Shown here: piece by piece, positions 1 to 53,405 of the stretch
Layout of the letters: every line of letters begins with the position of its first letter
Position numbering within the stretch: position 1 is the stretch's first letter
Origin: Streptomyces sp. HUAS ZL42
GTDB taxonomy: Bacteria; Actinomycetota; Actinomycetes; Streptomycetales; Streptomycetaceae
Length of the DNA stretch: 64,000 bases
Assembly (NCBI RefSeq): GCF_040782645.1
Contig: NZ_CP160403.1
Location: 310,001 to 374,000 of the forward strand
Reading direction: 5' to 3'
Notes under the pieces: generated by a model
What the model saw: only the letters and a program-made list of their open reading frames with translations
What the model was told of the DNA's origin: nothing
Database searches by the model: none
Program-made: the position numbers and the translations under genes

Positions 1-849
1 GAAGCAGGCCAGCACGATCAGTACGACCCCGGAGACCATGGAGACGACCTCGTCGCCCTGACTGCGGCCGCTCATCGCGAACGCGGCCGCATACACGACG
101 GCCGCGGCCGGCTTGTACAGCACGAAGGCGAGCAGCCATCCCACGGACCTGCGGAACCAGACCCGGCCGCCGGCGGTGCCGCTGACCGCCGCCGCCAGGG
201 GCAGCGTGCCGGTGAGGATCACCAGCATGGCCATCCGTACGATCATCAGCGCGATCTGCGCCACGCTCCCGGCGATCACCAGCATGGCCATGATCAGGAC
301 GAGGAACGACGAGTCCGTGCCGCCCAGCGCCAGCATGGCCGAGGTGCGTTTGTCGAACTCGGCGACACAGCTCGCCACCGGCTCGCCGGTGGCGCTGATC
401 TGCTCGCAGCCGGTGGACCTGTCGATGATCCAGACGCTGAACTTGTCGCCCGCCACGGCCAGCAGATTGACCGTGGCGACCCCGGCCGAGGAGACCACCA
501 CCAGGTTGAGCAGCCCCTGGAGCGCCTGGCGGGCGGGCTCGCCGCGGCGCTGCCAGGCGATGTGCCCGGCCGCGACGACCAGGCAGAGTACGGCGGCGAA
601 GGACGTGAACCAGAGCGTGGATCCGCGCAGGAACGCCACCGGGCCACCGGTGTCGTCCAGGTCGGGGGCGCCCAGGTTCATCCAGGCGCTGCCGAGTGCC
701 TTGACGGTGGTGCTCGCCGCCTGTGCGGCGCTCTCGGCGATGTCGTCGAACGCACTGCCGCCAAGGTCCTTCGGGGCCGTGCCCGCCCCGTCCCCCACGC
801 AGTAGCCGCCGATCGTCGGGGCCACCCAGCCGAAGTCGCAACCCGCCAT
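1..849 (-). CDS. VirB6/TrbL-like polytopic membrane protein, module A copy (3' end outside window)
   Basis: The reading frame stays open from an ATG at 849 to the window edge, giving 283 residues of an incomplete protein. It has hydrophobic segments around residues 75-95, 110-125, 190-210 and 225-260, and a conserved stretch around GTLPLAAAVSG followed by WFRRSVGWLLAFVLYKP. The same stretch (GTLPMAAAASI, then IGWMIAWLLYKP) occurs in the protein at 10453-11625, so the two are paralogues. VirB6-like proteins form the inner-membrane channel of type IV secretion systems; that role here is inferred from topology and neighbours. The start overlaps the upstream stop (TGATG), showing translational coupling with the single-pass membrane protein at 849-1610. 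Confidence 0.75.
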   Translation of the reverse strand, partial: MAGCDFGWVAPTIGGYCVGDGAGTAPKDLGGSAFDDIAESAAQAASTTVKALGSAWMNLGAPDLDDTGGPVAFLRGSTLWFTSFAAVLCLVVAAGHIAWQRRGEPARQALQGLLNLVVVSSAGVATVNLLAVAGDKFSVWIIDRSTGCEQISATGEPVASCVAEFDKRTSAMLALGGTDSSFLVLIMAMLVIAGSVAQIALMIVRMAMLVILTGTLPLAAAVSGTAGGRVWFRRSVGWLLAFVLYKPAAAVVYAAAFAMSGRSQGDEVVSMVSGVVLIVLACF

Positions 850-1610
850 CACACTCCTCCCCACTCGGCGTATCCGGCGAGGGAGTCGACCGGGGTGGGG
901 GCGGGCGGGTCGGCCGGGTACTCCAGCCTCCAGTCGCCGTCCCGCCACAGCACGGTGGTGGTGGCGGCCTGCATACGGCCGTCCGGGAACCGCCACACGG
1001 TCTGGATCACCGCCGTCGTGTCGTTGTAGGTGACGAATCTGAACCCGGCGATCTGCCCGTGCGCGGCGCCGCCCCCCTCGTCCGGGGGTGCCGTCCGTTC
1101 CGCCTCGGTCCGGTCGGCGATGTAGGTGTCGCGGCCCTCGCCGACGGTCTGGGTGCGGGTCACCTTCCGCCAGTCGTCGGCGGCCAGGTAACGCACGCTG
1201 ATCTGGCTGGTGGCCAGCAGGGCGCCGACGGGGGTGTGCGCGTAGCAGCGCGCCGCGTCCTCGTCGGCCAGGGCAGGGCCGGCCGCCTTCGAGGAGGGGA
1301 GGGCGACGGCTTCGTACAGGGTCCAGGTCACGCCCGCGGGCGCGGAGGTGGGCACGTCCTGCCGTTCGTCGGCGAGTTCGGGGCACTCGGCGTCGTCGGC
1401 GGCGGGCGGGGACCGCGGCGGGTCGGCGGTGCGGGTGCCGGGTGACGGAGCCGTGGTCGAGCCGTCCTTGCCCGAGGTGTCCGAACCGACGGCGATCGCC
1501 GCTCCGATGACGGCGACGAAGCCGATGAACGCGGCGGCGAGGACGAAGCCGGTACGCAGCCACGGACTGCGCGGCTCGTCGGGCGTCGCGCGGTCGCCGG
1601 GCTCTGCCAT
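849..1610 (-). CDS. Single-pass membrane protein, VirB8/TcpC-like by layout, module A copy
   Basis: This 253-residue protein has one N-terminal membrane helix (about 20-42), a proline/threonine-rich linker, and a soluble extracytoplasmic C-terminal domain. The end of that domain (WRDGDWRLEYP, then YAEWGGV) aligns with WREGDWKVALR and VMWGG in the protein at 9663-10451, so the two are diverged paralogues. The topology, with a conserved W-x-x-GDW strand, resembles NTF2-like domains of VirB8/TcpC type IV secretion subunits; this is inference from shape and context. The ATG at 1610 has a strong GGGGGAGG ribosome binding site. The stop overlaps the start of the VirB6-like gene. Confidence 0.7.
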   Translation of the reverse strand: MAEPGDRATPDEPRSPWLRTGFVLAAAFIGFVAVIGAAIAVGSDTSGKDGSTTAPSPGTRTADPPRSPPAADDAECPELADERQDVPTSAPAGVTWTLYEAVALPSSKAAGPALADEDAARCYAHTPVGALLATSQISVRYLAADDWRKVTRTQTVGEGRDTYIADRTEAERTAPPDEGGGAAHGQIAGFRFVTYNDTTAVIQTVWRFPDGRMQAATTTVLWRDGDWRLEYPADPPAPTPVDSLAGYAEWGGV

Positions 1611-1679
1611 GTTCCTCCCCCATCCTCGTGGGTTGTCAGGAGACGAGACGTCTGACGAGACGTCCTGTGAATCTCGGGA

Positions 1680-2009
1680 CTAGACGAGCGCCCCGACGAT
1701 CCCGGACGCGGAGCCGACGAGCAGGCACGCCCCCAGGACGAAGCCGAGGCCTCGGGCGTGCTCGCGGCCACCGCCCCGGGAGTGGTCGATCGCCATCCTG
1801 GCGGCGACGCCGAAGATGCCCGCGACACACAGGGCGGTGACGCTCCAGGCCACCCACTTCAGCACCGTCAGCAGCCCCTCCGCGCCGGGCGGCGCCTCTC
1901 CCCCGCCGACGTCCGGCACGCCCGAGGGCCCGGCGGACGCCCCGGCGAGGTCGGTGAGAGGGGTTATGTGAGGTGAGGCGTCCAGAGCGGCCGCCATCAG
2001 GCTGGACAA
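1680..2009 (-). CDS. Small two-helix membrane protein (pilin-like position), module A copy
   Basis: This protein of about 109 residues has two predicted membrane helices near its C-terminus, separated by a short basic segment (AIDHSRGGGREHARGLG). The same plan (helix, charged loop with R-GEG or R-G-E, helix ending at a small-residue C-terminus) appears in both small proteins at 8982-9275 and 9332-9634. The TTG at 2009 is chosen because GGGAGGAA lies 7 bases upstream; an ATG at 1997 is the alternative. Small two-helix proteins at this position in type IV secretion loci are usually VirB2/TrbC-like pilin subunits. That assignment is inferred. Confidence 0.62.
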   Translation of the reverse strand: MSSLMAAALDASPHITPLTDLAGASAGPSGVPDVGGGEAPPGAEGLLTVLKWVAWSVTALCVAGIFGVAARMAIDHSRGGGREHARGLGFVLGACLLVGSASGIVGALV

Positions 2010-2038
2010 GGGGGTTCCTCCCTGTTGTGGGGACGGGC

Positions 2039-2644
2039 CTATACGGGCCGGGTGAGTCGGGTCAGGTCGCGGGCCATCGGCGCGCATTCCTTGGGCAGGT
2101 GGGCCATGGGCGACTCACCGAGCCGCCAGGGCTCCACCCACGGGATCTCCCACAGCCGGGGCACCGCGCCGGAGACCAGCCGCACGAGGTTCTGCAGGAC
2201 CTTGGGGCGTCGGCCGGGGGCATCGGCGACGACGACCAGGCCGAGCAGATCGATGCCCGTGACCATGCCCGAGGCCCATTGCTGCGCCGCGTTCTGCGCA
2301 GCCCTGATGCCGTTCGCGCTGGTCCGAGCGACGAGCACGACCGACTGGGAGCCACCGGACACCGGCCAGGCACGGCCCGCGTCCCGGCCACCCGGCACAG
2401 CCCGCTCCAGGGTGCTGACCCCCGCGCCGCCGTGCACCCCCAGCCACCACCAGGCCTGGCCGGCACCCGTCCGAGGCCTGGTGACGGGCAGCGCGCGCTC
2501 GGGCCGCGGCACCCCGGCACCCTGGGGTGCCGCCGGGCCCGTGAGCTCCGCCTCCTGAACCGATCGCCCGGGTTTCCCGTTGAGGCCCCCCGAAGGGCGC
2601 GGCTGCGGCAACCAGGGATTGACATCCGACACATCCCCCGCCAC
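2039..2644 (-). CDS. Degenerate P-loop (MinD-like) protein, module A copy
   Basis: This 201-residue soluble protein starts at GTG 2644 behind GAAGGAG. Residues around 75-90 carry HGGAGVSTLERAV, which looks like a deviant Walker A of the ParA/MinD type in which the catalytic lysine is replaced. It is paralogous to 8380-8985 (shared blocks VVVADAPGR and PWRLGE / AWRLGE). From memory such proteins are labelled DUF6668 in Streptomyces annotations; that label should be checked. It heads the minus-strand module, as its paralogue heads the plus-strand one. Likely a cytoplasmic accessory factor of the secretion system, with nucleotide binding doubtful. Confidence 0.65.
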   Translation of the reverse strand: MAGDVSDVNPWLPQPRPSGGLNGKPGRSVQEAELTGPAAPQGAGVPRPERALPVTRPRTGAGQAWWWLGVHGGAGVSTLERAVPGGRDAGRAWPVSGGSQSVVLVARTSANGIRAAQNAAQQWASGMVTGIDLLGLVVVADAPGRRPKVLQNLVRLVSGAVPRLWEIPWVEPWRLGESPMAHLPKECAPMARDLTRLTRPV

Positions 2645-2802
2645 GGCATCTCCTTCAACTGCTGACGCAACAGCCCAAACTTATACAGAAGTTGCGAACT
2701 GGGCGCAAGTGATGATTTTTCAGAAACAAGGCACACAGGGCGAGTTGCGCCCTTCCTGAGCGCACGGGTCTCCGAAACGCATGGGTTCTTGGGGGGTTGG
2801 AC
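2645..2802. promoter_or_regulatory. Divergent intergenic control region
   Basis: About 158 bases separate the minus-strand module A from the plus-strand wall-hydrolase gene. The stretch around 2675-2745 is clearly more AT-rich than its surroundings, which is typical of promoters in this GC-rich genome. No specific promoter boxes could be assigned with confidence. Confidence 0.4.
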
Positions 2803-3852
2803 ATGAGCGGCCAGGCCACACAGGCGAGATCTGCGGTGCTGGTGACGGGCTGCGCCGTCCTCGGGCTGCTCGGCTCCATGGTCTGCCTGTCGGTGCTGGG
2901 AGCCGCGGAGCAGGAACAGGATGCCGCCCCCGTAGGGTTCGCCACCACGTTCGACTCCGGGCGCGTCCCGACCGAGTTCGTGCCGTGGATCGAGCGCGCC
3001 GCCCGGCAGTGCGCGGAGGTCAGCGCCCCGCTGCTGGCCGCCCAGATCGAGGCGGAGTCCGGCTGGAACCCCTCCGCGGTGAGCCCGGCCGACGCGCGGG
3101 GCCTGAGCCAGTTCGTCCCCGGCACCTGGGCGACGTGGGGCGTGGACGCGGCCGGCAAGGACGGCAGCCCCCGACCGGACGGCGTGGCCGACCCGTTCAC
3201 CCCGGGCGACGCCATCATGACCCAGGCGCGCTACGACTGCTGGCTCGCGGACAAAGTCAAGAAGACGAACGTCGCTGGCGATCCCACACGGCTGATGCTC
3301 GCCGCCTACAACGCGGGGCCCGGCGCGGTCGAGCAGTTCGGCGGCGTTCCTCCCTACCCGGAGACCCAGGCCTACGTCGCCGCGATCATCGAGTCGATGG
3401 CCGACTACACGGACGGCGAACCGGCCGAGACCGGCGGCGCGTTCGGTGAACGGGTGGTGGCGGCCGCCAGGAAATGGCTCGGCACCCCTTACTCGTGGGG
3501 CGGCGGCGGGCCGGAGGGCCCCGGGCGCGGGTACGCGCAGGGCGCGAACACGGTCGGGTTCGACTGCTCCAGCCTCGTCCAGTACGCGGTCTACCAGGCC
3601 AGCGGCGGCGAGGTCCTCGCGCCGCGGGTCTCCCAACTCCAGGTCACTGCGGGCAAGGCGGTGCCCCGCGACAAGATGCGGCCCGGTGACGTGATCGGGT
3701 TCAACCTGCACGGCAGCTACGACCACATCGGCATCTACATCGGCCACGGGCAGTTCATCCACGCCCCCAAGACCGGCGACGTGGTCAAGATCAGCAGCCT
3801 CGACGAGCCCTACTACACCAGCAGGCCCCAGAAGGTGAGGCGCTTCGGATGA
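2803..3852 (+). CDS. Bifunctional lytic transglycosylase / NlpC-P60 endopeptidase
   Basis: This 349-residue protein has an N-terminal membrane helix (about 10-35). Residues 55-210 form an SLT-type lytic transglycosylase domain (catalytic Glu near 84 in the ESGWNP motif, plus GLSQF and AAYNAGPG). Residues 215-349 form an NlpC/P60 peptidase, with Cys near 255 in GFDCSS and His near 308 in YDHIGIYIG. The first domain cuts glycan strands and the second cuts peptide stems, opening the cell wall, as VirB1-like or CwlT-like proteins do for conjugation machines. The ATG at 2803 follows GGGGGG; a TTG at 2797 is possible. The stop overlaps the next start by 4 bp. Confidence 0.88.
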   Translation: MSGQATQARSAVLVTGCAVLGLLGSMVCLSVLGAAEQEQDAAPVGFATTFDSGRVPTEFVPWIERAARQCAEVSAPLLAAQIEAESGWNPSAVSPADARGLSQFVPGTWATWGVDAAGKDGSPRPDGVADPFTPGDAIMTQARYDCWLADKVKKTNVAGDPTRLMLAAYNAGPGAVEQFGGVPPYPETQAYVAAIIESMADYTDGEPAETGGAFGERVVAAARKWLGTPYSWGGGGPEGPGRGYAQGANTVGFDCSSLVQYAVYQASGGEVLAPRVSQLQVTAGKAVPRDKMRPGDVIGFNLHGSYDHIGIYIGHGQFIHAPKTGDVVKISSLDEPYYTSRPQKVRRFG

Positions 3853-4511
3853 CGCTCTCCCGTGCGCGAGGTACACGCGACACCACCGCGGTGGCCGCGG
3901 CGATGCTCGCACTCGTCCTCGCCGTGGGCGGCTGCGGCAGCGGCGGCAAGCAGCGTGACGCGGCTACGACGCCGTCGACTCCCACCGCGACCGGCACCGG
4001 CCCGTATCCGACCCCGTCCGGCCCCCGCGAGGCCTCGCCTCTGCCGACGGGCTCCAAAGGCACCCCCCGGGGAGGCACCACCCGGCCCCGCGACGTCGAC
4101 CAGGAGGACGCCGACGCAGTCGGCCGGAGCACGCTCACGGTGATGTGGACGTTCGACACCGCCATCGACAGCGGCCCCTACGACGCCAGTGTGCGCGCCG
4201 CGGATGCGGGCTGGCTGACCCCGGCGTACGCGAAGCGGCTGCGTACGCACCAGTCCCGCTCCGTCCCCGGCACGCAGTGGCGGGAATGGGCCGGTCACCA
4301 CGCCTCCACCGTCGTCACGCTGGAGAAAGCCGAGGACGCCGCGATACCCCCCGACACCGGCACCCAGGCCTGGCGGCAGTGGGCGGTCACCGCCTCCCCG
4401 CACGGCCGCGACCGGTGGACGGGCGAGCCCACCACCGTCGTCGCGTATGTGCAGCTCATCCGCGCGGCTGCCGGCCAGGCCTGGCGGGTCGCCGACGTCA
4501 CCGTCCGATAG
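3849..4511 (+). CDS. Lipoprotein of the secretion-like cluster, function unknown
   Basis: This 220-residue protein has a signal peptide ending in a lipobox (LAVGGCGS, Cys near 35). A low-complexity Thr/Pro linker follows to about residue 85, then a globular domain (about 85-220) rich in Trp. The domain starts with a helix (VMWTFDTAI) and contains the pattern PGTQWREWAGH, plausible for an NTF2-like fold; this is a guess from pattern only. It is translationally coupled to the wall hydrolase (ATGA overlap), so the two probably act together outside the membrane during assembly of the secretion channel. Confidence 0.7.
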   Translation: MTLSRARGTRDTTAVAAAMLALVLAVGGCGSGGKQRDAATTPSTPTATGTGPYPTPSGPREASPLPTGSKGTPRGGTTRPRDVDQEDADAVGRSTLTVMWTFDTAIDSGPYDASVRAADAGWLTPAYAKRLRTHQSRSVPGTQWREWAGHHASTVVTLEKAEDAAIPPDTGTQAWRQWAVTASPHGRDRWTGEPTTVVAYVQLIRAAAGQAWRVADVTVR

Positions 4512-4546
4512 CCCGGACCTCCCCGTCCGACAGCCAGGAGAAGTTC

Positions 4547-5494
4547 ATGCCGACGACGCACGAGTCCACCGAAGTGCCCGCCTGGCCGGTCTACGCCCTC
4601 GCCGTGCACGACGACGGCCGGGTCGAGGCCTCCGGCCCTCTGGTCCCCATGACCAGGCACCCCAGCCGTACCTCGGCCATCGGCACGGTGGCCGCCGCGG
4701 CCGCCAGGCTCGGCCGTCCGGTGCGGGCCAGGGCTACCGAGCCGGACGGCACCGTATGGCACCTGGCCATATCGCCCGACGGCGCGGTGAGTGAACTCCC
4801 CGGCGGCGGACAGCGTGCGAGGGCGCCGAAGCGAGGCGACGGCAGGCCTCCGGCTCACCCGGCGAGGGCGGCCACCGCCCCGGCGAGAGCACCCGGGGCC
4901 GAACCGGACCCGCGCACGGGGCCCGACGCGTACGCCGAGTCGCTGGCCCTGGTCACCGAACACCTTCAGGCCGGCCGTGTCGACCGGGCCGCGGAGCTCG
5001 CCGCGCTGCTCGACGATCAGGCCGCCGACACTCTCGGCGTCTCCCACCCCGACGCCCTGGGCATCCGCGAGATCCGGGCCCGCGTCGCCGTCCTGGCCGG
5101 GGACGTCGTCGGCGGCGTGCGGCTGTTCCGCGACGTCGCCGAGCGCTGGCACTACCGGGGGGACAGCGAGCGGGCCGAGGCCGCCGCGGCTCGCGCCGAG
5201 ACGGTCTGGCTGCAGATCACCGATCTGGACACGGCGCTGTCGGCCGGGATCGGCGTGGTCCGCCTGCGCAACCAGATCCCGGGTGAGGACGGCAGCGCGC
5301 TCACCGCCGTCCTGGAACACCAGGCATGGCTGGCAGCAGCCCGCGCGGCAGACCGCGAGCCGCTGCCGCGCGCGCACCCCGCGAAACCGCTGCCACGAGC
5401 GCTTCCCGCGGCGGACCGGTCCACCAAGGCGCGGGGACGGCGCCCTATGCCGTCCTGGGAGCGCCCCGCGCAGGACACCAGTGCGGCGAGATGA
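4547..5494 (+). CDS. Cytoplasmic helical-repeat protein of the secretion-like cluster
   Basis: This 315-residue soluble protein starts at ATG 4547 behind AGGAG; upstream in-frame extensions lack a ribosome binding site. The N-terminal 75 residues look like a beta-rich domain, followed by a Pro/Ala-rich linker. Residues about 125-240 form Ala/Leu-rich helical hairpins of TPR-like character (LAALLDDQAADTLGVSHPDAL). The minus-strand protein at 6324-7349 has the same layout, and its helical part (FGPEHPHTLEAHALEAFVA) aligns with this one. Streptomyces TPR proteins often have the related pattern LGxxHPxTL. Probably an adaptor or regulator; no catalytic motif is seen. Confidence 0.65.
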   Translation: MPTTHESTEVPAWPVYALAVHDDGRVEASGPLVPMTRHPSRTSAIGTVAAAAARLGRPVRARATEPDGTVWHLAISPDGAVSELPGGGQRARAPKRGDGRPPAHPARAATAPARAPGAEPDPRTGPDAYAESLALVTEHLQAGRVDRAAELAALLDDQAADTLGVSHPDALGIREIRARVAVLAGDVVGGVRLFRDVAERWHYRGDSERAEAAAARAETVWLQITDLDTALSAGIGVVRLRNQIPGEDGSALTAVLEHQAWLAAARAADREPLPRAHPAKPLPRALPAADRSTKARGRRPMPSWERPAQDTSAAR

Positions 5495-5506
5495 GTCCGC
5501 AGCGCC

Positions 5507-6094
5507 TCACGCCGCGGGCGTGCACCACCACGCGGGCTTCGCGCCGACCTCCTCGTCGGGAGTCGCGACGACGCCCAGGGCCATGCGCAGGGCCCGTACG
5601 GCGTGGTACAGGCGCGATTTGACGGTGCCCGGCGGGATACCGAGCACCAGGGCTGCCTCGCGCGTCGACCTGCCGCAGTAGTAGGTCTCGTACACCACCT
5701 CGCGGTGCTTGGGCGACAGCGCGCTGAACGCGTCCCTGAGGATCATCGAGGAAAGCAGCTGGTCGACGTCGTCGCGCTGCGCCAGCAGTTCGTCCAGCCA
5801 GGCGGTGCCGTCGACCTCCTGGGGACGCGCCATGCGCAGCCGGTACTCGTCGACGACGAGATTGCGGGCCACCCGGAACAGCCACGGCCGCTGGGGCTCG
5901 CCGCTTTCCAGGTCCTGAGTGCGCCAGCAGCGCAGCAGCGTCTCCTGCACCACGTCCTCCGCTCTGTGCCGGTCGCCCCCCAGTAACCGCATCACATACT
6001 TGTACAGATCCCCGGCTTGCTCGTCGAACAACGTGCGCATCGCTCGTTCCCGAGCGGTGACCGCTCCCGTGGAACCCATCACGGTCCAGCTCAA
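5507..6094 (-). CDS. ECF-type RNA polymerase sigma factor
   Basis: This 195-residue sigma-70 family protein has region 2 at about 20-90 (FDEQAGDLYKYVMRLLGGDRHRAEDVVQETL, shown in part; W-R-T-Q and RPWLFRVARNLVVDEYR follow). Region 4 lies at about 120-175 (LSPKHREVV, then the helix-turn-helix STREAALVLGIPPGTVKSRL). There is no region 3, as in ECF sigmas. TTG 6094 is preferred because GAGGGAG lies 7 bases upstream; ATG 6079 is the alternative. No obvious anti-sigma gene is adjacent. Its central place between the two halves of the secretion-like cluster suggests that it controls them. Confidence 0.88.
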   Translation of the reverse strand: MSWTVMGSTGAVTARERAMRTLFDEQAGDLYKYVMRLLGGDRHRAEDVVQETLLRCWRTQDLESGEPQRPWLFRVARNLVVDEYRLRMARPQEVDGTAWLDELLAQRDDVDQLLSSMILRDAFSALSPKHREVVYETYYCGRSTREAALVLGIPPGTVKSRLYHAVRALRMALGVVATPDEEVGAKPAWWCTPAA

Positions 6095-6114
6095 GGTCGC
6101 ACTCCCTCGTCTGT

Positions 6115-6132
6115 GACCTCCTGACGGAGGTC
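6115..6132. promoter_or_regulatory. Perfect palindrome upstream of sigma factor gene
   Basis: GACCTCC-TGAC-GGAGGTC forms a 7-bp perfect inverted repeat with a 4-base centre, ending 21 bases upstream of the TTG start of the ECF sigma gene. On the minus-strand transcript it would form a hairpin just 5' of the ribosome binding site, or it could be an operator in DNA. The function is inferred only from position. Confidence 0.4.
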
Positions 6133-6323
6133 AGGTTTCGAGGCCTTGGTCAGCGGCCTCGATTCGCGGGGAGTCTTGCGAGCGGAGTTCCACGTCGTGT
6201 TGACGAGCGATTGACGGCGCGAGGGGCGGATGGCATCGGAATTCGGGCCGCACAGGGTGGCGGCGGGGCCGCACAAGCCGTGCCGACGCGCCGCCACTGC
6301 CCGGTTGAGCTGCGCTGTCTCTC

Positions 6324-7349
6324 TCAGGCAGCTCCGGTGACGTGGGTGGCCGACGCGGCGGTCAGGGCGTGCATACGGCGATTGACGAGGTGCGGCAATG
6401 CGGCGTCCGTCACTGTCGGCCCGTCCTGTTCCGCGCGCACGGGCCACACCGCGAGCAGCGCGGCAAGCAGTGCCCGGCCGTGGTCGACGGCAAACGGCAC
6501 GTCGTCGATGAGCAGCCATGCCGCGACCGCGCGGATCAGCTCCTCACGGGCTCGGAAGTCGCCCTGCCGGTGGCGGATCCGGGCGAGTTCGAGGCAGGTG
6601 GCCGTGGCGAGGCGGTGGTTTTCGCCCCGGTGGGCGACGAACGCCTCCAGGGCGTGGGCCTCAAGCGTGTGGGGGTGCTCGGGGCCGAAGGCGCGTGCGG
6701 TGTGCTCCCGCAGCCGGAAGGCGAGTGCCGCCGCCCGTTCCAGCGCGCCGGTGTCCAGGGACTGGCGCACGAGCCCGACGAGTTCGGCGAGCTCGGCCGG
6801 GACCGCCTCCGGAACCTGCGCGTCCACGGCGACGGGTCGTGTCCCGGCGGGGTGCGCGGGCTCGGCCGGAGCTGGACCGGTGGGCGAAGAACGTTCGGCT
6901 CCGGCGGCGGACGGCGCGCCGCCCACGGACAGCGGCTCGCCGGCGTGTGACGGCCCCGCCGCAAACGCCGGCCGGGCGGCAGGCGGTGGCCCTGCCGGTG
7001 TCGGTCCGGCGGCGGGACGGGGCTCCGCCTCGGGCATCGCGTCGTGCTGCTCGTGGAGGAGGATCCGGCTCGAACCGTCGGGGGCGACCTCGACTCGGGT
7101 GGCGTAGCCCTCCTGTCGGTCGAGGATCGCCGCCTCTACGGGATCGCCCAGAGCCCGGGCCTGACGGTGCATCGCATCGAGCACGGCGACGTGGACCGGT
7201 TCGCCGTCCGGTACGGGGAAGGGTGCGCCGTTGACCAGCACACTGCCGTCAGGGCGGATCAGAACCTCCACCGCCGTCGAGGAGGACGGTGGCTGCGCTG
7301 CCGTGCCGTGGTGTGCGTCCTGGTCCTGTCGGGTGCGTTTGCCCAACAT
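6324..7349 (-). CDS. Cytoplasmic helical-repeat protein, paralogue of the 4547-5494 gene
   Basis: This 341-residue protein starts at ATG 7349 behind AAGGAG; a longer in-frame start upstream would overlap the neighbouring gene and has no signal. Residues 30-100 form a small domain (VEVLIRPDGSVLVNG), 100-190 are a Pro/Ala linker, and 190-320 are helical hairpins with FGPEHPHTLEAH. Both architecture and sequence match the plus-strand protein at 4547-5494. It follows the lytic transglycosylase gene by 23 bp and is probably co-transcribed with it. The role is inferred as a cytoplasmic accessory of the secretion system. Confidence 0.65.
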   Translation of the reverse strand: MLGKRTRQDQDAHHGTAAQPPSSSTAVEVLIRPDGSVLVNGAPFPVPDGEPVHVAVLDAMHRQARALGDPVEAAILDRQEGYATRVEVAPDGSSRILLHEQHDAMPEAEPRPAAGPTPAGPPPAARPAFAAGPSHAGEPLSVGGAPSAAGAERSSPTGPAPAEPAHPAGTRPVAVDAQVPEAVPAELAELVGLVRQSLDTGALERAAALAFRLREHTARAFGPEHPHTLEAHALEAFVAHRGENHRLATATCLELARIRHRQGDFRAREELIRAVAAWLLIDDVPFAVDHGRALLAALLAVWPVRAEQDGPTVTDAALPHLVNRRMHALTAASATHVTGAA

Positions 7350-7372
7350 GTGCTGGCTCCTTGCTGTGCTGG

Positions 7373-8179
7373 TCACGACGAGGGCGTGGGCCGCGGGCTG
7401 AGGGAGGGGTACGGCGACTCGTACGGCATGTCGACGGAGTTGGAGTACAGGGCGAAGCCCGACCTGACGCCGATGATGTAGCTCTGCGCCCGGTCGTTGT
7501 CCGGTACGCCCTTCGCCTGCTTGACCGCGTCCAGGCCGCTGTCGTACGCCGCCAGGGTCAGGTTCAGGGGATCCCCCTTGACCTCGTTGTTGGCGATCAG
7601 TGTGTCGATCTCCTTGGCCAGTGAGCACATGTACTTGGACTGCGCCTTGATCGAGTCCGCGGCGTCCAGGCCAGAGGTCTTGTCATTGTCGTCCGCGTCC
7701 TCGCCGAACTCCTTGAACTTGTCCGGGGGCACTTGGGAGATGCCCTCTGCCCCGTCGGGGCCGACCAGCTTCTCGTTCCACCCCGACTCCAGCTGGATCT
7801 GCGCGGCGATGACGATGGCGCCGATCTGCGTGCACTCGTTCCCGGCTTCCTCGACGAGCGTGACGTACTGGGAGGGGATGGTGGCGGAGTTCAGCTGGCC
7901 CTTCCCGTCGCTCTCGTATGCGGCAATGACCTGGTCGTTGTCCAGCCCCCCTCCGTCGCTGTCGTCGCCGCAGGGCAAGAGGTTGATCTTGCAGAGAAGC
8001 ATGAGCGGCCAGAACACAAACCCCAGAAGGCACGCGACCAGCGTCCCGATGGCGATGACGATGAGGAGGACGAAGGCGAGGCACCCCAGGATCGGCGCGC
8101 TGGCGAGGCCGGCGAAGAGCACGGTGTTCCTGGTCTTGTCCTTCTGGGCCTGCTCATCCTCACCGGCAGCTGCGCTCAC
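7373..8179 (-). CDS. Membrane-anchored lytic transglycosylase (SLT domain)
   Basis: This 268-residue protein has one long hydrophobic segment (about 22-65, possibly two helices). An extracytoplasmic SLT-like domain follows at 105-255, with Glu in LESGWNEK and the blocks GISQVPPDKF and LAAYDSGLDAV. It parallels the first half of the SLT-NlpC protein at 2803-3852 but lacks the peptidase domain. VirB1-type enzymes of this kind open the peptidoglycan for secretion machinery. It is the first gene of a minus-strand pair with the helical-repeat gene and is divergent from the plus-strand secretion operon. Confidence 0.78.
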   Translation of the reverse strand: MSAAAGEDEQAQKDKTRNTVLFAGLASAPILGCLAFVLLIVIAIGTLVACLLGFVFWPLMLLCKINLLPCGDDSDGGGLDNDQVIAAYESDGKGQLNSATIPSQYVTLVEEAGNECTQIGAIVIAAQIQLESGWNEKLVGPDGAEGISQVPPDKFKEFGEDADDNDKTSGLDAADSIKAQSKYMCSLAKEIDTLIANNEVKGDPLNLTLAAYDSGLDAVKQAKGVPDNDRAQSYIIGVRSGFALYSNSVDMPYESPYPSLSPRPTPSS

Positions 8180-8379
8180 GACCCGTCACACCCCTTGCGT
8201 TCGCCTGCACGACCTGGGTCCCCGACGGCCTTGAACCAGGTCACCCGATTTCCCGTAGTGGCTGCCCGACGGATCACCGCGAGCACCGCATGCCGCAACG
8301 GACACGGCGGTCCATCAGTTCAATCCGGGATCCGTCGCAGTACGCGAACGAGGGGAAACGAGGGAAGGGGTGGACGCGC
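8180..8379. promoter_or_regulatory. Divergent promoter region of the main secretion operon
   Basis: These 200 bases separate the minus-strand transglycosylase gene from the plus-strand operon that starts at 8380. They must hold promoters for both. No confident -35/-10 pair or palindrome was found by eye. Confidence 0.35.
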
Positions 8380-8985
8380 ATGGGCGTCCCTTCGGCGACG
8401 TCCGCCGGCTCGCAGATGTGGGTCCGCGGACCGATCGCACAACAGGCAGCGTCGGCGCGTACGGCACCGGCCGCACCATCGCGCCCCGCAGCCCGGACGG
8501 CGCTGCCCAGGCCCCCCACGCCGGCCGGACGAGCGCCGTCGGCGTCCCGGGGCCACCAGGTCGCCTGGGTCACCGCGCACGGAGGCTCCGGGGCGAGCAC
8601 GCTCGCCCGGGTCCTGGGCGGCGCGGACATCGGCAGCCGGTGGCCCGACCCGGCCAGGGGCGAACCCGGCCGGGTGCTGCTGGTGGCACGCACCCACAAC
8701 GCGGGCATGAGAGCGGCGTCCCAGGCACTGAACGCACTGCGCAAGGGGGAGCACCCCGCGGGAGTGCAGCTCCTGGCCGTCGTGCTCGTCGCCGACGCGC
8801 CGGGACGGCTGCCGCGCCCACTGGGCCGACGTGTGCGCGTGCTGCGTTCGGCAGCCGAGGTCCACCGCGTTCCGTGGATCCCTGCCTGGCGCCTCGGCGA
8901 GGAGGCCGACCAACTTCCAAGGGCGGTGCGCGCGCTGGCCCGGAGCATCGCGGCCCCGGCCGGCCACCCGGGGAGGCCGAGGTGA
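8380..8985 (+). CDS. Degenerate P-loop (MinD-like) protein, module B copy
   Basis: This 201-residue soluble protein is chosen to start at ATG 8380, with AGGGAAGGGG 10-19 bases upstream; a longer frame from 8290 lacks a signal. Around residues 64-80 it has TAHGGSGASTLARVLGG, a Walker A-like loop lacking the usual lysine. LLAVVLVADAPGR and WRLGEEADQLPRAV match the module A paralogue. It is the first gene of the secretion operon, and its stop overlaps the GTG of the next gene. Likely a cytoplasmic partner; the family label DUF6668 is recalled, not verified. Confidence 0.68.
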   Translation: MGVPSATSAGSQMWVRGPIAQQAASARTAPAAPSRPAARTALPRPPTPAGRAPSASRGHQVAWVTAHGGSGASTLARVLGGADIGSRWPDPARGEPGRVLLVARTHNAGMRAASQALNALRKGEHPAGVQLLAVVLVADAPGRLPRPLGRRVRVLRSAAEVHRVPWIPAWRLGEEADQLPRAVRALARSIAAPAGHPGRPR

Positions 8986-9275
8986 AGCTGTCGGCCGACT
9001 GGATCACCAAGGCGGGCATCAACCCGGACGACTTCGGCCCCAAGAAGGGAACCTTCGACCCGCAGCCCCAGGCCGGCGAATTGCTCGGCTACCTCTCCTG
9101 GATCGTGTCGGCCGCCTCCGTGGGGGGCCTGCTCGTCGTGGGCACCCAGATGGCCCTACAGCTGCGCCGCGGCGAAATGGGCGAAGGGTCGACCTATTTC
9201 AGGGGCGGCTTCTTCGTCATCGGCGCCTGCGTCCTCGGCACCACCGCCGCACCGATCGTCAATTTCCTGCTGTAG
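8982..9275 (+). CDS. Small two-helix membrane protein 1 (pilin-like position)
   Basis: This 97-residue protein starts at GTG 8982 (GGGGAGG upstream, 4-bp overlap with the preceding stop). Two helices (about 38-58 and 74-95) are separated by QLRRGEMGEGSTYFRG, and the C-terminus is NFLL. The same pattern recurs in the adjacent gene (SMKRGEGSEHLSRLG, KFLFA). Such pairs fit VirB2/TrbC-like structural subunits of a type IV secretion pilus or channel; this is inferred. Confidence 0.62.
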   Translation: MKLSADWITKAGINPDDFGPKKGTFDPQPQAGELLGYLSWIVSAASVGGLLVVGTQMALQLRRGEMGEGSTYFRGGFFVIGACVLGTTAAPIVNFLL

Positions 9276-9331
9276 CCGGTTCTCAACCAGCCACACAAAC
9301 CCTTACTCGTTTGCAACACCTGGAGAATCTC

Positions 9332-9634
9332 ATGAAGGACACCCTGCACTCCCTCCACCTGGCTGGCGTAAATTATCTGGCCACCGCTGACGTCCCCCAG
9401 CCGGCCAAGAAGGCCCCTGGCGACCTCGCCAACAAGGTCAACCTCGTTCTGGGTATTGCAGCCTGGGCCGGCACCGCCGCCGGTGTGGCGGGCGTCCTCA
9501 TCACGGGAATCATGATGGCCGTGTCCATGAAGCGCGGAGAGGGATCCGAGCACCTCAGCCGCCTCGGCATGGTGGCGGGCGGCTGCGTCCTGGTGGCCAC
9601 CGCGGGGCCCACCGTCAAATTCCTCTTCGCTTAG
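9332..9634 (+). CDS. Small two-helix membrane protein 2 (pilin-like position)
   Basis: This 100-residue protein starts at ATG 9332 with TGGAGA upstream. It has a soluble N-terminus of about 35 residues, then two helices flanking MAVSMKRGEGSEHLSRLG. It is a tandem paralogue of the preceding gene and also resembles the single small protein of module A (1680-2009). Two different small subunits in this module against one visible in module A may mean a heteromeric structure. Confidence 0.62.
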   Translation: MKDTLHSLHLAGVNYLATADVPQPAKKAPGDLANKVNLVLGIAAWAGTAAGVAGVLITGIMMAVSMKRGEGSEHLSRLGMVAGGCVLVATAGPTVKFLFA

Positions 9635-9662
9635 GACCCGACCGCAGGAGAGGTCCATCGAC

Positions 9663-10451
9663 GTGTTCGGCACAAAACGAAAAAGGGGCCCGGTGGACGG
9701 GCCTTTCTACAAAGAGCAAGGCTGGATCAATGCGGCCCTGTTCCTGGGATTCATCGTGGTCATGTCGCTGATGGCCTTCGTGAACGAAACCATGGGTTCG
9801 GACAGCGCCAAGGGTACGGACAGCACGGCCGACAGCCGGGAGACGCTCGCCGGGCTCGGCGGTCCGCTGTCTCCCGGAGACCCGCAGCAGGTCCGGCAGG
9901 GTCCGGGCGGCCGCCCGGAGAAGTGCCGTACCGACGACCGGGACACCGCGCGACCCACCGCCGCGCCAACGGATGTGCGGTGGCAGAAGCTCATCGCCAT
10001 CATGGTGCCCACCTCGCCGTCGGCCGGCCCGCTGCGCACCGAGGCCACGATGTGGTGGTGCTTCGCCCACACGCCCACGGGGGCGGTGCTGGCGGCACAC
10101 GTCATTCCCGTCGAGTTGAGCGGCGCCGCCTGGCGCATGGTCGCGGAGCAGCAGGTCGTGCCCGGCGAGCCGCGCGACGCGTTCGTCACCAGCAAGGCGA
10201 GGGCCGACGAGACGAACCTGGAGGAGAGCGCCATCGGGAGGTTCGTGGGCTTCTCCCTGGCGTCGTACTCGGGCGACTCCGCGACCGTACGGCTGCTCGT
10301 CACCAATCCCACGGGCGGCTACCTGTCGACGTCGGTGTCCGTGCGCTGGCGGGAGGGCGACTGGAAGGTGGCGCTCCGGCACGACGGGTCCCTCTACTCG
10401 TCCGTGAAAAGGACAGCGGATCCCGACGGCTTCGTCATGTGGGGAGGGTGA
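9663..10451 (+). CDS. Single-pass membrane protein, VirB8/TcpC-like by layout, module B copy
   Basis: This 262-residue protein starts at GTG 9663 behind AGGAGAGG. One membrane helix (about 22-40) follows a short basic N-terminus, then a soluble domain to the end with the motif SVSVRWREGDWKVALR. It is paralogous to 849-1610 in module A. One base separates it from the VirB6-like gene, so the two are co-translated. The VirB8-like role (bitopic scaffold of the channel) is inferred from topology and operon position. Confidence 0.7.
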   Translation: MFGTKRKRGPVDGPFYKEQGWINAALFLGFIVVMSLMAFVNETMGSDSAKGTDSTADSRETLAGLGGPLSPGDPQQVRQGPGGRPEKCRTDDRDTARPTAAPTDVRWQKLIAIMVPTSPSAGPLRTEATMWWCFAHTPTGAVLAAHVIPVELSGAAWRMVAEQQVVPGEPRDAFVTSKARADETNLEESAIGRFVGFSLASYSGDSATVRLLVTNPTGGYLSTSVSVRWREGDWKVALRHDGSLYSSVKRTADPDGFVMWGG

Positions 10452-10452
10452 C

Positions 10453-11625
10453 ATGTTCTTGGCTGAACAAGGCGAAGGGTGCGACGGCGGACTCGATCTC
10501 CTCGGGATGTTCGACGATCCCATCGGCGAGATGATCGAAATGGTCGCCAAGATCGTAATCAACGGCGCCATCGGGATCTTCAACGCCGTGGGAGACATCG
10601 ATTCCATCAACAAGGGCGCATCAAACAAGATCGGCGGCGAGACACAGTGGATCGTCGTATACCTCGCGTGCGGCTCGCTCCTCGTCGCCGCCGTCAAGAT
10701 GGCTCTGGAGCGGCGCGGCGAAGCGGGTACGACCGCGCTGAAGGGCATCCTGCGCGTCGTCGTGGTCTCCGCGGCCGCGACCGCTTTGATCGACTCGTTC
10801 GTCGGCCTCACGGAGAGGTACCACGACTACCTGTTCGACAACACCCTCAAGGCCTTGATGGCTGGAGTCAATTGCCCCGGCGCTGAAGTCATTCCGGACA
10901 TGCTGCTGCTGGTCATCGGGTGCCTGCTGATCCTTGCCGGCATCGTCCACGCGATCCTGATGTGGGTCCGGCTCGGCGTGATGATCATGCTGATGGGCAC
11001 GCTCCCCATGGCAGCCGCCGCCTCCATAACGGACTGGGGCGGTACGTGGTGGCGCAAGCACATCGGCTGGATGATCGCCTGGCTGCTGTACAAGCCCACG
11101 GTCGCTCTCATCATGTACTCGGGGGCCGTCATGGTCGACGAGTCGGAGGGCTACAGCAACGCCGACACGCAGCTCGCGGGAATGGCCACCCTGCTGTTGT
11201 CGGCCGTCGCCCTGCCGGCGCTCATGCGACTTGTCGTCCCGGCGACGGCCGCTCTCGGCGGCGACTCGGTCGGGTCCGCGACCATGGGCCTCGCCGGCGC
11301 CCTCGCCTCCGGAGCGGTGGCTCTGGCGGACTCGGGCAGCCGCAAGGGCGGCGCTGGCGCCGACGGTGCCTCCGGATCCCGCGGCCCCTCGGGGGCGAGC
11401 GGCGGTGGCGGCGCACCCGGCGGCTCGGGCGGCCGGGGCGCAAGCGGCGGAACCGAGCCGGCGGGCAAGTCCGGAGGGGCGGGCGCCGCAGGGAACTCCG
11501 CCCTCGCCGCGATGGCCGTGGTGGGGAAGATCGCCAAGGGTGCCGTGAACGTCGCCCAGAGCGGGGTCGAGGGCGCCGACGGGGAACAGGGCAGCGGCGG
11601 CAGCGGCGGCCGCGGCGGCCACTGA
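10453..11625 (+). CDS. VirB6/TrbL-like polytopic membrane protein, module B copy
   Basis: This 390-residue protein has at least five to six membrane helices between residues 70 and 270, including LLLVIGCLLILAGIVHAIL, MGTLPMAAAASITDW and GWMIAWLLYKPTVALIM. A Gly/Ser/Ala-rich, probably disordered C-terminal tail covers about 300-390. The central block matches the incomplete module A protein at 1-849. VirB6-like proteins build the inner-membrane pore of type IV secretion systems. It sits directly after the VirB8-like gene and before the SCO6880/VirB4 genes, the expected order. Confidence 0.75.
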   Translation: MFLAEQGEGCDGGLDLLGMFDDPIGEMIEMVAKIVINGAIGIFNAVGDIDSINKGASNKIGGETQWIVVYLACGSLLVAAVKMALERRGEAGTTALKGILRVVVVSAAATALIDSFVGLTERYHDYLFDNTLKALMAGVNCPGAEVIPDMLLLVIGCLLILAGIVHAILMWVRLGVMIMLMGTLPMAAAASITDWGGTWWRKHIGWMIAWLLYKPTVALIMYSGAVMVDESEGYSNADTQLAGMATLLLSAVALPALMRLVVPATAALGGDSVGSATMGLAGALASGAVALADSGSRKGGAGADGASGSRGPSGASGGGGAPGGSGGRGASGGTEPAGKSGGAGAAGNSALAAMAVVGKIAKGAVNVAQSGVEGADGEQGSGGSGGRGGH

Positions 11626-11773: not shown

Positions 11774-13270
11774 ATGTCCACCGAAACCGCCACCGCAGAC
11801 CCGACGTACGGGAACTGGCGCAGGCCGAGGCGGCCCGGCCTCGGTCCGTTCGGGCTCGTCGGCACCATCGGGCTGTTCGGCGGGCTCGTCCTCGACCTGT
11901 TGGTGTCGCTGATCTCACTGCAGTTCACACTGGTCGTGATCGTCATCCAGTGCACGTTCCTGCTGCCGCTGGCCGTGCGCACACAGGACGGGCGCAACGT
12001 CTACCAGCTCACCGCCCTGCGCATCGGCTGGTTCCGGCGCAAGGCCAAGGGGGTGACCACCTATGTCTCCGGTCCGCTGTCGCAGCGGCCGGGCGGCAAG
12101 TTCCGCCCGCCGGGACTGCTCAGCCGGGTCAGGGTGACGGAGGGCAGGGACGCCTACGACCAGCCGTTCGGCGTGCTGCACCACCCCAGCAGGAACCTGT
12201 ACACCATCGTGCTCGGCTGCGAACCCGACGGCGGGTCCCTGGTCGACCCCGACCAGATCGACAACTGGGTGGCGGCATGGGGCCATTGGCTGGCCCGGCT
12301 GTCCAGCGAGCCGAACCTGCGCGGAGCCTCCGTGATCGTGGAGACCGCCCCGGACACCGGAACCCGGCTGGCCAACGAGGTGCTGCCGCGCATCGACCCG
12401 GGCGCCCCGGCGGCGGCGCGGGCCGTGATGGAGGAGGTGGTGCAGCGCTACCCGACCGCGTCGTCGGAGATGCACACCTACCTCACTCTGACCTACGGGA
12501 TGCCGACCGGGCAGAAACGCAAGAGCGAGGACATCATCGCCGACCTGGCCATCCGCATTCCCGGCCTGCTGGACGGAGTGGTGAGGGCGGGCGGCGGGCC
12601 CGCCGCCCCCTTGTCGGCCGAGAACATCGCCGAAGTCGTCCGGGTGGCCTACGACCCGGCCGTGGCGGCAGACGTCCTCGAAGCCCGTGCCGTCCACGGC
12701 GGCACCGGCCTGGAATGGGACGACGCCGGTCCCGCGGCGGCCATCGAGAAGGTCAACGCGTACCAGCACGACTCGGGGGTGTCGCGGACCTGGATGCTCA
12801 CCCTGGCACCGCGCGGCACGGTGCGCGCCCAGGTGCTGCGCGGCCTGCTGGAGGACGCGCCCGGCACCCGCCGCAAGCGGGTGGCGCTGCTGTACCGGCC
12901 CATCGACCCGGCGACCTCGGCGCGCATCGTCGAGGCCGACCGGCGGGCGGCGCAGTTCATGGCCACGTCCCGGCGCGGCATGGTGCAGGCGCGTGCCGCC
13001 AACGAGGTGCGCGCCGCCGAGCAGACGGCGGTGGAGGAGGCCACCGGGGCCGGCCTGGTGGAGTTCTCACTGATGGTCACGGTGACGGTCGACTCCGACG
13101 CCGAACTGGAGGACGCGAACGTGACGGTGCGCAATCTGCTGGCGGGGGCACGGCTGTTGATGCGGCCGGCCGACCGGATGCAGGCGGCGGCGTTCAGCTG
13201 CACGCTGCCGGTCGGAATCCTGCCGTGGGAGCACACGCTGATGCCGCGCGAGTTGAAGGAAGCACTGTGA
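11774..13270 (+). CDS. SCO6880-family type IV secretion protein (PrgI/VirB3-VirB4 N-terminal-like)
   Basis: This 498-residue protein starts at ATG 11774. Two close membrane helices lie at about 27-70 (GPFGLVGTIGLFGGLVLDLL and the segment after it), and the rest is soluble. It resembles proteins annotated as SCO6880 family in Streptomyces, in which a PrgI/VirB3-like membrane part is joined to a region like the VirB4 N-terminus. No Walker motif is present, and the ATPase domain is supplied by the next gene, which overlaps by 4 bp. Together the two genes correspond to the VirB3-VirB4 unit of other systems. Confidence 0.75.
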   Translation: MSTETATADPTYGNWRRPRRPGLGPFGLVGTIGLFGGLVLDLLVSLISLQFTLVVIVIQCTFLLPLAVRTQDGRNVYQLTALRIGWFRRKAKGVTTYVSGPLSQRPGGKFRPPGLLSRVRVTEGRDAYDQPFGVLHHPSRNLYTIVLGCEPDGGSLVDPDQIDNWVAAWGHWLARLSSEPNLRGASVIVETAPDTGTRLANEVLPRIDPGAPAAARAVMEEVVQRYPTASSEMHTYLTLTYGMPTGQKRKSEDIIADLAIRIPGLLDGVVRAGGGPAAPLSAENIAEVVRVAYDPAVAADVLEARAVHGGTGLEWDDAGPAAAIEKVNAYQHDSGVSRTWMLTLAPRGTVRAQVLRGLLEDAPGTRRKRVALLYRPIDPATSARIVEADRRAAQFMATSRRGMVQARAANEVRAAEQTAVEEATGAGLVEFSLMVTVTVDSDAELEDANVTVRNLLAGARLLMRPADRMQAAAFSCTLPVGILPWEHTLMPRELKEAL

Positions 13271-14883
13271 GGACCAAGGACAAACGCGGTAAGGGCCAGG
13301 GCGAGTACCAGGACGACCTCGCCCCGATCAGGTACAAGGACGAGGACCCGGACTACAGGCCCCCGAAGGACAAGAAGAGGAGCAAGAGCGGTCCCGACCG
13401 ACCGTCCAGGGAGCCGCTCGCTCCCGCCCGCGGCTGGTCCGGCCCCGGCGGCGGACAGGTCGCCAATCTGGACCCGCCGTCGATGTGGCGGGCCACCACC
13501 GTGCAGGCATGCGGGCTGTGGCCGTTCGCGGCGGGTTCCGGCGCGCCCATGACAGGCGTCCCGCTGGGACAGCACCTGTACACCGGAGCCACCGTGTGCG
13601 GTGACCCGATGTCGTGGTTCACCCGCGCCCACTACATCTCCAACCCCTCGATGTTCATGCTCGGCATGCCGGGCCTGGGCAAGTCCACCCTGGTCAACCG
13701 CATGCTCATCGGTCTGGCCGCCACCGGCGTGGTGCCGCTGGTGCTGGGCGACCTGAAGCCCGACTACGCCGACACCGTGCGGGCTCTGGGCGGCCAGGTC
13801 ATCTCCATCGGACGCGGCGTGGGCGGCGTCAACGTCCTGGATCCCGGCGCCATGGGTGCGGCCGCCCGGAAGATCGGCGGCGAGGCGGGACGCGTGCTGT
13901 CCGCAGAGACCCACGGCCGCGTCCTCAACATGGTCGCCGCACTCGTCACCATCGTGCGCGACCGCGCCATGGACGACCACGAGCAGTCCGTGCTGTCCGC
14001 GGCCCTGCACCATCTGCGCGAACGCACACCCCCCGGCCGCGCGCCGCTGCTGCCCGACCTGGTGCGGGTCATCGCCGAAGGACCCGAACGGGTGCGGGCG
14101 GTGACCCTGGACCGCGGGGAGGAGACCCGCTACCGCGACGCGGTGGATCCGCTGCACCGCTCGCTGCTCGGCATCCTGGACGGGCCGTTGGGCGACACGT
14201 TCGCCTCCGAGACCTCCACCCGCATCGACCTCGGCTCGCCGGCGGTGTGCATGGACATCTCCCGGATCGGGGAGGCGGACACCCAGCTGACCGCGGCGGC
14301 GATGCTGGCGGCCTGGTCCGACGGCCTGGGCACGGTGGCCGCCTCCCACGCGCTGGCGGACGCCGGACTCACGCCCCGGCGCTGGTTCTTCACCGTGCTC
14401 GACGAGCTGTGGCGGCCGCTGCGCGCGGCCTCCGGCATCGTGGACCGCATCGACGCACTGACTCGCCTCAACCGCACCCTGGGCCTCGGCGACGCCAAGA
14501 TCACACACACCTTGAAGGACGCCGAGGCGCTGGGCACCGACGCCGACCGGGTCAAGGCGCGCGGCTTCGTCGAGCGCGCCGGCATGGTGGTGTGCGCGGG
14601 GCTGCCCCGCCAGGAGATGGAGGAGCTGGGGCACATCGTGGGCCTGTCCCGCCGGGAGATCGAACTGGTCTCCTCCTGGTCCTCGCCGCCGGGCTGGGCC
14701 GCGCAGGGGGACCGCGAGGAACCGCCCGGCCGCGGCCGCTTCCTGATCAAGGTCGGTGGCCGGCCCGGCATCCCGATCCAGGTCGCCATCACCGACACCG
14801 AGCGACATCTGCACGACACGAACAAGCGGTGGGCGGCGAACAAGCCCGCCGACGGCTCCCGACACGTCGGCTTCTCCGAGTAA
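13267..14883 (+). CDS. VirB4/TraC-like secretion ATPase
   Basis: This 538-residue protein starts at GTG 13267, overlapping the previous stop. A charged N-terminal tail (KDKRGKGQGEYQDDLAPIRY) precedes an ATPase domain with Walker A GMPGLGKST near residues 132-140 and Walker B WFFTVLDELW near 375-384. A C-terminal helical lid with a QEMEELGHIVGLS motif follows. VirB4 ATPases power assembly of type IV secretion channels on the cytoplasmic face. The lack of an N-terminal domain is explained by the preceding SCO6880-type gene, so the function is split over two polypeptides. Confidence 0.85.
   Translation: MRTKDKRGKGQGEYQDDLAPIRYKDEDPDYRPPKDKKRSKSGPDRPSREPLAPARGWSGPGGGQVANLDPPSMWRATTVQACGLWPFAAGSGAPMTGVPLGQHLYTGATVCGDPMSWFTRAHYISNPSMFMLGMPGLGKSTLVNRMLIGLAATGVVPLVLGDLKPDYADTVRALGGQVISIGRGVGGVNVLDPGAMGAAARKIGGEAGRVLSAETHGRVLNMVAALVTIVRDRAMDDHEQSVLSAALHHLRERTPPGRAPLLPDLVRVIAEGPERVRAVTLDRGEETRYRDAVDPLHRSLLGILDGPLGDTFASETSTRIDLGSPAVCMDISRIGEADTQLTAAAMLAAWSDGLGTVAASHALADAGLTPRRWFFTVLDELWRPLRAASGIVDRIDALTRLNRTLGLGDAKITHTLKDAEALGTDADRVKARGFVERAGMVVCAGLPRQEMEELGHIVGLSRREIELVSSWSSPPGWAAQGDREEPPGRGRFLIKVGGRPGIPIQVAITDTERHLHDTNKRWAANKPADGSRHVGFSE

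Positions 14884-49525: not shown

Positions 49526-53405
<3,880 letters not shown>

What the first reader, a model, noticed from the sequence alone, without database searches (positions are those of the whole stretch)
1..11625. Two diverged, inverted copies of a four-part type IV secretion module
The minus-strand genes at 1-2644 (P-loop-like, small two-helix, single-pass, VirB6-like) and the plus-strand genes at 8380-11625 (same order, with one extra small protein) are paralogous gene by gene, as shown by shared blocks such as VVVADAPGR, W-R-x-GDW and GTLP-AAA. Only one VirB4 and one VirD4 are visible. The system may build two alternative or mixed membrane complexes on a common motor, which I do not recall being described.
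Basis: partly seen in the sequence, partly recalled or inferred. Interest (0 to 1): 0.72.

Follow-up and report, generated by a model that had tools for sequence, protein, structure and literature searches.

The report
Paired secretion systems, one coupling motor
A Streptomyces chromosome carries two complete but distantly related type IV secretion (DNA/protein-export) gene sets side by side in opposite directions; each has its own assembly motor, but only one has the gate-keeping motor that loads cargo, and the two sets travel together in related species, which hints that they work as a pair.

The parts
2039..2644 (-). A1: DUF6668 protein, degenerate P-loop (HGGAGVSTL)
   Evidence: PF20373 E 6.6e-13; pairs with B1
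1680..2087 (-). A2: small two-helix membrane protein (start may be 1997)
   Evidence: pairs with B2 and B2'
849..1610 (-). A3: single-pass protein, aligned with B3
   Evidence: pairs with B3 34%; alignment A3
1..849 (-). A4: polytopic (VirB6-like by position) protein, cut by the window edge; full gene L003:14578-15849
   Evidence: VirB6 label not tested. A5 (SCO6880 family) and A6 (VirB4 ATPase) follow outside the window at G000:C1:308092-309585 and 306573-308042
2803..3852 (+). A_SLT: SLT transglycosylase + NlpC/P60 endopeptidase (VirB1-like)
   Evidence: PF01464 E 1.8e-12, PF00877 E 4e-24
3849..4511 (+). A_LIPO: putative lipoprotein, only in module A
   Evidence: no family above cut-off; hit in 14 of 15 named core-A loci (not L113; only a cut piece in L118)
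4547..5494 (+). A_TPR: companion protein of module A (TPR-like by recall)
   Evidence: pairs with B_TPR, z 8.3; no Pfam family above cut-off
5507..6094 (-). B_SIG: ECF-type sigma factor beside module B
   Evidence: PF08281, PF04542
6324..7349 (-). B_TPR: companion protein of module B
   Evidence: no Pfam family above cut-off
7373..8179 (-). B_SLT: SLT transglycosylase of module B
   Evidence: PF01464 E 4.7e-10; pairs with A_SLT
8380..8985 (+). B1: DUF6668 protein
   Evidence: PF20373 E 2.3e-9
8982..9275 (+). B2: small two-helix protein
9332..9634 (+). B2': second small two-helix protein, weak TrbC/VirB2 similarity
   Evidence: PF04956 E 0.0095, below cut-off; 41% to B2
9663..10451 (+). B3: single-pass protein with NTF2-like domain
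10453..11625 (+). B4: polytopic (VirB6-like by position) protein
11774..13270 (+). B5: SCO6880 family = helix hairpin + VirB4 N-terminal-type domain
13267..14883 (+). B6: VirB4 C-terminal ATPase
   Evidence: NF045975 E 2.6e-9, below its cut-off; alignment profile matches solved VirB4 4ag5 E 8.9e-4
14948..16780 (+). B7: VirD4 coupling protein, the only PF02534 match in the genome
   Evidence: PF12696 E 2.5e-31, PF02534 E 2.6e-23

Best explanation
The locus encodes two actinobacterial SCO6880-type type IV secretion systems. Each builds its own membrane complex from two-helix (VirB2-like), NTF2-like (VirB8-like) and polytopic (VirB6-like) subunits, a VirB3 plus VirB4-N-domain protein (SCO6880) and a separate VirB4 C-terminal ATPase, and each has its own wall-cutting transglycosylase. 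Only system B has a VirD4 coupling protein. Core A lacks the VirD4 that most of its more distant relatives carry, and it is inherited together with B. The mechanism I think most likely is that both channels are loaded through B's VirD4: one substrate-selecting gate, two alternative exits. Shown: homology, gene content, absence of VirD4 next to A, one VirD4 in the genome, co-occurrence, fold match of B5. Inferred: subunit names other than VirB4/VirD4, docking of VirD4 on A, the substrate, and any transfer activity.
For: Own VirB4 and SCO6880 in A. One PF02534 match in G000, G105 and G032. VirD4 directly after VirB4 in 0 of 12 core A loci against 30 of 36 other A loci (the sequences are related, so Fisher p 2.7e-7 overstates); none near A in G000, G105, G088 or G138 when A-type VirD4 queries were added, B7 being the only one there. 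A and B are separate starred clades; the five paired B form one subclade, core A one clade. 14 of 15 named core-A genomes carry both VirB4s. A/B distance matrices r = 0.90, 0 of 10,000 permutations. dN/dS 0.11-0.12 (A6) and 0.16-0.27 (B7), four comparisons each. The one core A without B (S. fuscigenes, L113) has no A1, SLT, LIPO or TPR in its locus.
Against: Solo A modules without VirD4 exist, so its absence need not mean borrowing: the second A module of G105 (its genome has only B's VirD4, 4 Mb away), the NBC_00148 plasmid module (none in the 30.8 of 54.3 kb read), Nonomuraea (4 of 4 loci; 3 of 4 genomes without any PF02534 match) and Actinomadura (2 of 2 loci). The first two are among the closest outgroups of core A, so the loss may be older than the pairing. 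In 10 of the 15 named core-A genomes PF02534 matches at further places too, so A could use another VirD4 there. Co-inheritance may only reflect linkage and descent; no species-tree control was run. No interaction evidence.
Confidence: 0.38

Rival explanations
1. A is a VirD4-independent machine (adhesion, pilus or protein exporter), in the way proposed for Bartonella Trw, and sits beside a complete B system without using its VirD4.
For: VirD4-less solo A modules in G105, on the NBC_00148 plasmid, in Nonomuraea and Actinomadura; precedent in PMC12857230 (passages).
Against: Coupling of core A to B in 14 of 15 named genomes, and gene loss at A in the one genome without B.
Confidence: 0.35
2. The two gene sets make one mixed complex (heteromeric rings of A and B subunits).
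For: The core subunits are paired and co-inherited; duplicated subunits are known in Rickettsia rvh (PMC2653234 passages).
Against: Each set is complete including its own VirB4 halves; solo B modules and solo outgroup A modules are common, so each type presumably works alone elsewhere. A and B split long ago.
Confidence: 0.12
3. The locus is a relic of two conjugative elements side by side with no joint function, on its way to decay.
For: No PF03432 or PF08751 relaxase match in G000; relatives on plasmids; transposase-like genes nearby, judged by eye.
Against: dN/dS below 1 for nearly all comparisons (31 of 32; the exception is A3 against L106, 1.21, with dS only 0.03), open reading frames in both modules, VirB4 motifs kept in 15 of 15.
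Confidence: 0.13

Closest known systems
cmdABCDEF (SCO4126-4131) of Streptomyces coelicolor, PMC2782261
   Same: Same architecture: VirD4-like, VirB4, SCO6880-type, polytopic, single-pass and two-helix genes, read from the cmd-type cluster of this genome at 5.13-5.14 Mb (orthology inferred from order and sequence). The paper suggests a possible type IV-like channel and names SCO6878/6880/6881 as relatives.
   Different: A single cluster affecting sporulation; the CmdA-like protein here has lost the P-loop; far in sequence (B5 to CmdC-like 24%).
SLP2 conjugation genes SLP2.19-23, and SCO6880-type modules on actinobacterial plasmids
   Same: SLP2.21-23 resemble SCO4127-4129 and the cluster is needed for transfer (PMC2782261). 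B5 is 71-82% identical to ten Streptomyces plasmid proteins; A5 is 60-66% identical to eight on Streptomyces/Kitasatospora plasmids.
   Different: In the three plasmid stretches read there is one module. SLP2 itself was not compared here; another paper treats SLP2.19 as a terminal-protein gene (PMC3572947 passages).
Bartonella VirB/D4 plus Trw
   Same: Two T4SS in one cell, one with and one without VirD4 (PMC12857230 passages).
   Different: Gram-negative; not adjacent inverted paralogues and with unsplit VirB4 (both from recall).
Rickettsia rvh T4SS
   Same: Duplicated virB4, virB8, virB9 and virB6 (PMC2653234 passages).
   Different: Scattered genes; only one copy of virB4, virB8 and virB9 keeps the conserved features; not two complete modules.
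TraB/Spd conjugation of Streptomyces
   Same: DNA transfer machinery of the same genus (PMC12857230 passages).
   Different: FtsK-like translocase described as working without other known T4SS subunits.

Membership tests
Type IV secretion system | VirB4 ATPase (signature subunit) | tested here: met
   [not shown]
Type IV secretion system | VirD4 coupling protein | tested here: met
   B7, PF12696 and PF02534 above cut-off; absent from module A
Type IV secretion system | VirB8-like NTF2 subunit | tested here: inconclusive
   [not shown]
Type IV secretion system | VirB6-like polytopic subunit | not tested
   A4/B4 homologous to the CmdD-like protein; no Pfam or NCBIfam match above cut-off; label from order and hydrophobicity
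Type IV secretion system | peptidoglycan hydrolase (VirB1-like) | tested here: met
   SLT in both, NlpC/P60 in A
SCO6880 family (NF042935) | score above curated cut-off of 60 bits | tested here: met
   548 and 513 bits
Conjugative element (ICE or plasmid) | relaxase | tested here: not met
   PF03432 and PF08751 give 0 matches in G000; other relaxase families not searched
Conjugative element (ICE or plasmid) | integrase and attachment sites | not tested
   none noticed by eye among called genes, no family search
cmd cluster | groups with the cmd-locus protein rather than with each other | tested here: not met
   A and B group apart from the cmd-locus protein, itself on a long branch; A/B pairs far closer than either to cmd

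The most novel reading that the evidence does not exclude
An obligate two-channel type IV secretion apparatus: two anciently diverged, complete T4SS modules with split VirB4 motors share a single VirD4 gate and work without a known relaxase, perhaps delivering proteins or protein-capped DNA between hyphae, the choice of exit being set by which VirB4 docks.
Probability: 0.27. Interest if true: 0.75.

Novelty: new variant of a known kind. Interest (0 to 1): 0.5.

Why it matters
VirB4-type secretion in Streptomyces gets little attention: the Streptomyces passages of a recent T4SS review that I read cover only TraB/Spd (PMC12857230), although VirD4, TraC and VirB4 genes have been annotated in S. 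mirabilis (PMC9195940, passage) and the cmd cluster was linked to VirB4 in 2009. This locus shows two complete T4SS modules side by side in a Streptomyces chromosome, with VirB4 divided into two genes, and one module without its own coupling protein. That makes a basic question testable by single gene deletions: can one VirD4 serve two different T4SS channels in the same cell?

Tried and rejected
Recent local inverted duplication: rejected. A5/B5 are 43% identical and fall in separate clades; A's includes other orders and plasmids.

Integrated ICE: not supported. No PF03432 or PF08751 match in G000, G105 or G032; no integrase noticed by eye. The block order is swapped between G000/G105/G032 and G088/G138, as a circular permutation would give, but neighbours (AfsR-type regulator, ricin-lectin, thaumatin-glycosidase, DUF418 genes) recur near the pair in several species, which fits a rearranged chromosomal locus as well.

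The 5.32-Mb DNA hit (74% over about 80 bases) was fetched; the genes shown there look unrelated, but the output was cut and part of that list was not seen. The 3.04-Mb weak SCO6880 match is an EccE protein.

PDB sequence searches: the SCO6880 and NTF2-like alignments gave 0 matches, DUF6668 one at E 0.93. Literature (open-licence PMC only): SCO-number search gave 2 papers, PMC2782261 and a terminal-protein paper; DUF6668 / 'SCO6880 family' 0; end-first transfer 0; shared-coupling search 2, not read. PMC3218068 was read in passages only.

Rows dropped: two Kribbella rows fell out of the tree at my length filter (13 of 15 named or plasmid loci entered); G106 fell out of the tree and was counted as B by its hits. 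One search listed only part of its matches; all 41 listed at 480 bits or more were examined, below that 21 and the cmd locus of G000. Six core-A VirB4 matches (G203, G205, G208, G210, G211, G212) show one stop inside the aligned stretch; since A6 frames of 484 aa or more are open in all 15 genomes, I take these stops to be the gene ends.

Full report
What is there. The window is G000:C1:310001-374000 of a 9,866,886-base single-contig genome, Streptomyces by its relatives. Module A runs leftwards from 2644: A1 (DUF6668), A2, A3, A4, and then, outside the window, A5 (SCO6880 family, E 2e-164) and A6 (VirB4-like ATPase). Module B runs rightwards from 8380: B1, B2, B2', B3, B4, B5, B6 and B7 = VirD4. 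Between them lie A_SLT, A_LIPO and A_TPR on the plus strand, and B_SIG, B_TPR and B_SLT on the minus strand. Transglycosylase and companion genes are paired too, so eight gene pairs match.

Motors. Genome-wide, the SCO6880 model has three matches over cut-off (A, B, cmd) and PF02534 has one, B7. PF02534 does not report the degenerate CmdA-like protein, so strongly altered coupling proteins could escape it. Both VirB4 ATPases keep Walker A (GRPGLGKS in A, GMPGLGKS in B) and a DE box in 15 of 15 genomes. VirD4 keeps APRAGKST in 15 of 15. DUF6668 of module A keeps HGGAGV[ST][ST]L, without the usual lysine, in 14 of 15; the fifteenth row is a fragment.

Distribution. In 199 Streptomyces genomes every genome has an SCO6880 match over cut-off. 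I examined all 41 listed matches of 480 bits or more, and 21 of the lower ones besides the cmd locus of G000, with their neighbourhoods; matches below 480 bits, fragments included, were not all examined. Among these, core A occurs in 6 genomes, the B clade in 22, both in 5 (0.66 expected, hypergeometric p 6e-5 without correction for kinship). In the tree A and B are separate clades (99/92 and 100/99); the five paired B form one subclade (98/94), and core A is one clade of six rows (100/100), the unpaired G112 among them. In named genomes, 15 loci have core A (84-96% identity; one is Kitasatospora aureofaciens); three are the same genomes as, judged by contig coordinates (L110 = G032, L112 = G138, L113 = G112). 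Fourteen of the 15 also have B's VirB4: nine on the same contig, two with B genes on A's contig before a break (L110, L111), three unresolved at contig ends (L108, L114, L118). In these 11 resolved cases A and B are inverted to each other, head-to-head or tail-to-tail.

History. Other A modules carry VirD4 directly after VirB4 in 30 of 36 loci; core A in 0 of 12 with 2 kb of flank, three more having too little flank. The six exceptions are Nonomuraea (4) and Actinomadura (2); in three of the four Nonomuraea genomes PF02534 finds nothing. Two of core A's closest outgroups, the second A module of G105 and the module of the NBC_00148 plasmid, also show no VirD4 (30.8 of the plasmid's 54.3 kb read), while L122, in the same group, has one. 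So VirD4 was lost more than once, or lost before the pairing in part of this group. Of the 15 named core-A genomes PF02534 has a single match in 3, two pieces of one gene in 1 more, none in S. fuscigenes, and matches at further places in 10. A/B distances correlate at r 0.90 over 15 genomes, which linked vertical descent would also give. dN/dS against four relatives is 0.11-0.12 for A6, 0.15-0.27 for B6, 0.16-0.27 for B7, and higher for A3 (0.39-1.21).

How it most likely works. Two envelope channels, each with its own split VirB4, its own two-helix subunits and its own wall hydrolase. One VirD4 beside B selects cargo. Because core A has none and is kept with B, I think A is loaded through B7. 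That A is a VirD4-free machine is nearly as likely. No PF03432 or PF08751 relaxase was found in G000, so ordinary relaxase-led conjugation by this locus is unlikely; protein export or an unusual DNA substrate is open.

What is known. cmdABCDEF was described as a membrane-protein cluster for differentiation, with VirB4 similarity for CmdB. The paper names SCO6878/6880/6881 as relatives in a 14-gene cluster; null mutants of SCO6878 or SCO6881 showed no sporulation or pigment phenotype (authors' unpublished data) (PMC2782261). VirD4, TraC and VirB4 genes were annotated in S. mirabilis (PMC9195940, passage). A VirD4-less T4SS in a cell with a VirD4-bearing one is known from Bartonella, and duplicated subunits from Rickettsia. 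I saw no description of the paired locus in the listings of searches, which cover open-licence papers only.

Noticed in passing
[not shown]
   Followed up: partly
L012:5880-7634 (G000:C1:5132880-5134634): The CmdA-like protein is a degenerate VirD4: 30% identical to B7, TraG-D_C E 4e-5, but where B7 has APRAGKST it reads PPAARQAT (aligned by eye). In S. coelicolor the cmdA deletion showed no apparent sporulation difference (PMC2782261).
   Followed up: partly
L113: S. fuscigenes has core A without B; A1, SLT, LIPO and TPR are missing from the locus, and transposase-like genes (by eye) lie upstream of A2.
   Followed up: partly
L004:9499-12366 and L003:2142-3647: An AfsR-type regulator (BTAD, NB-ARC, TPR) and a ricin-lectin protein similar to B_TPR over about 130 residues (48%) lie left of A; relatives recur beside the pair in other species.
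   Followed up: partly
G105:C1:1342757-1351615 (L060): A second, solo A-type module without VirD4 in the same genome as an A/B pair.
   Followed up: partly
G080:C1:5073166-5102551 (L053, L054): Another inverted pair of SCO6880 modules of different clades about 25 kb apart, each with its own VirD4-like gene.
   Followed up: no
window 52903-52979: A tRNA-Asp call lies inside a plus-strand reading frame picked by composition at 51990-53405; not examined.
   Followed up: no
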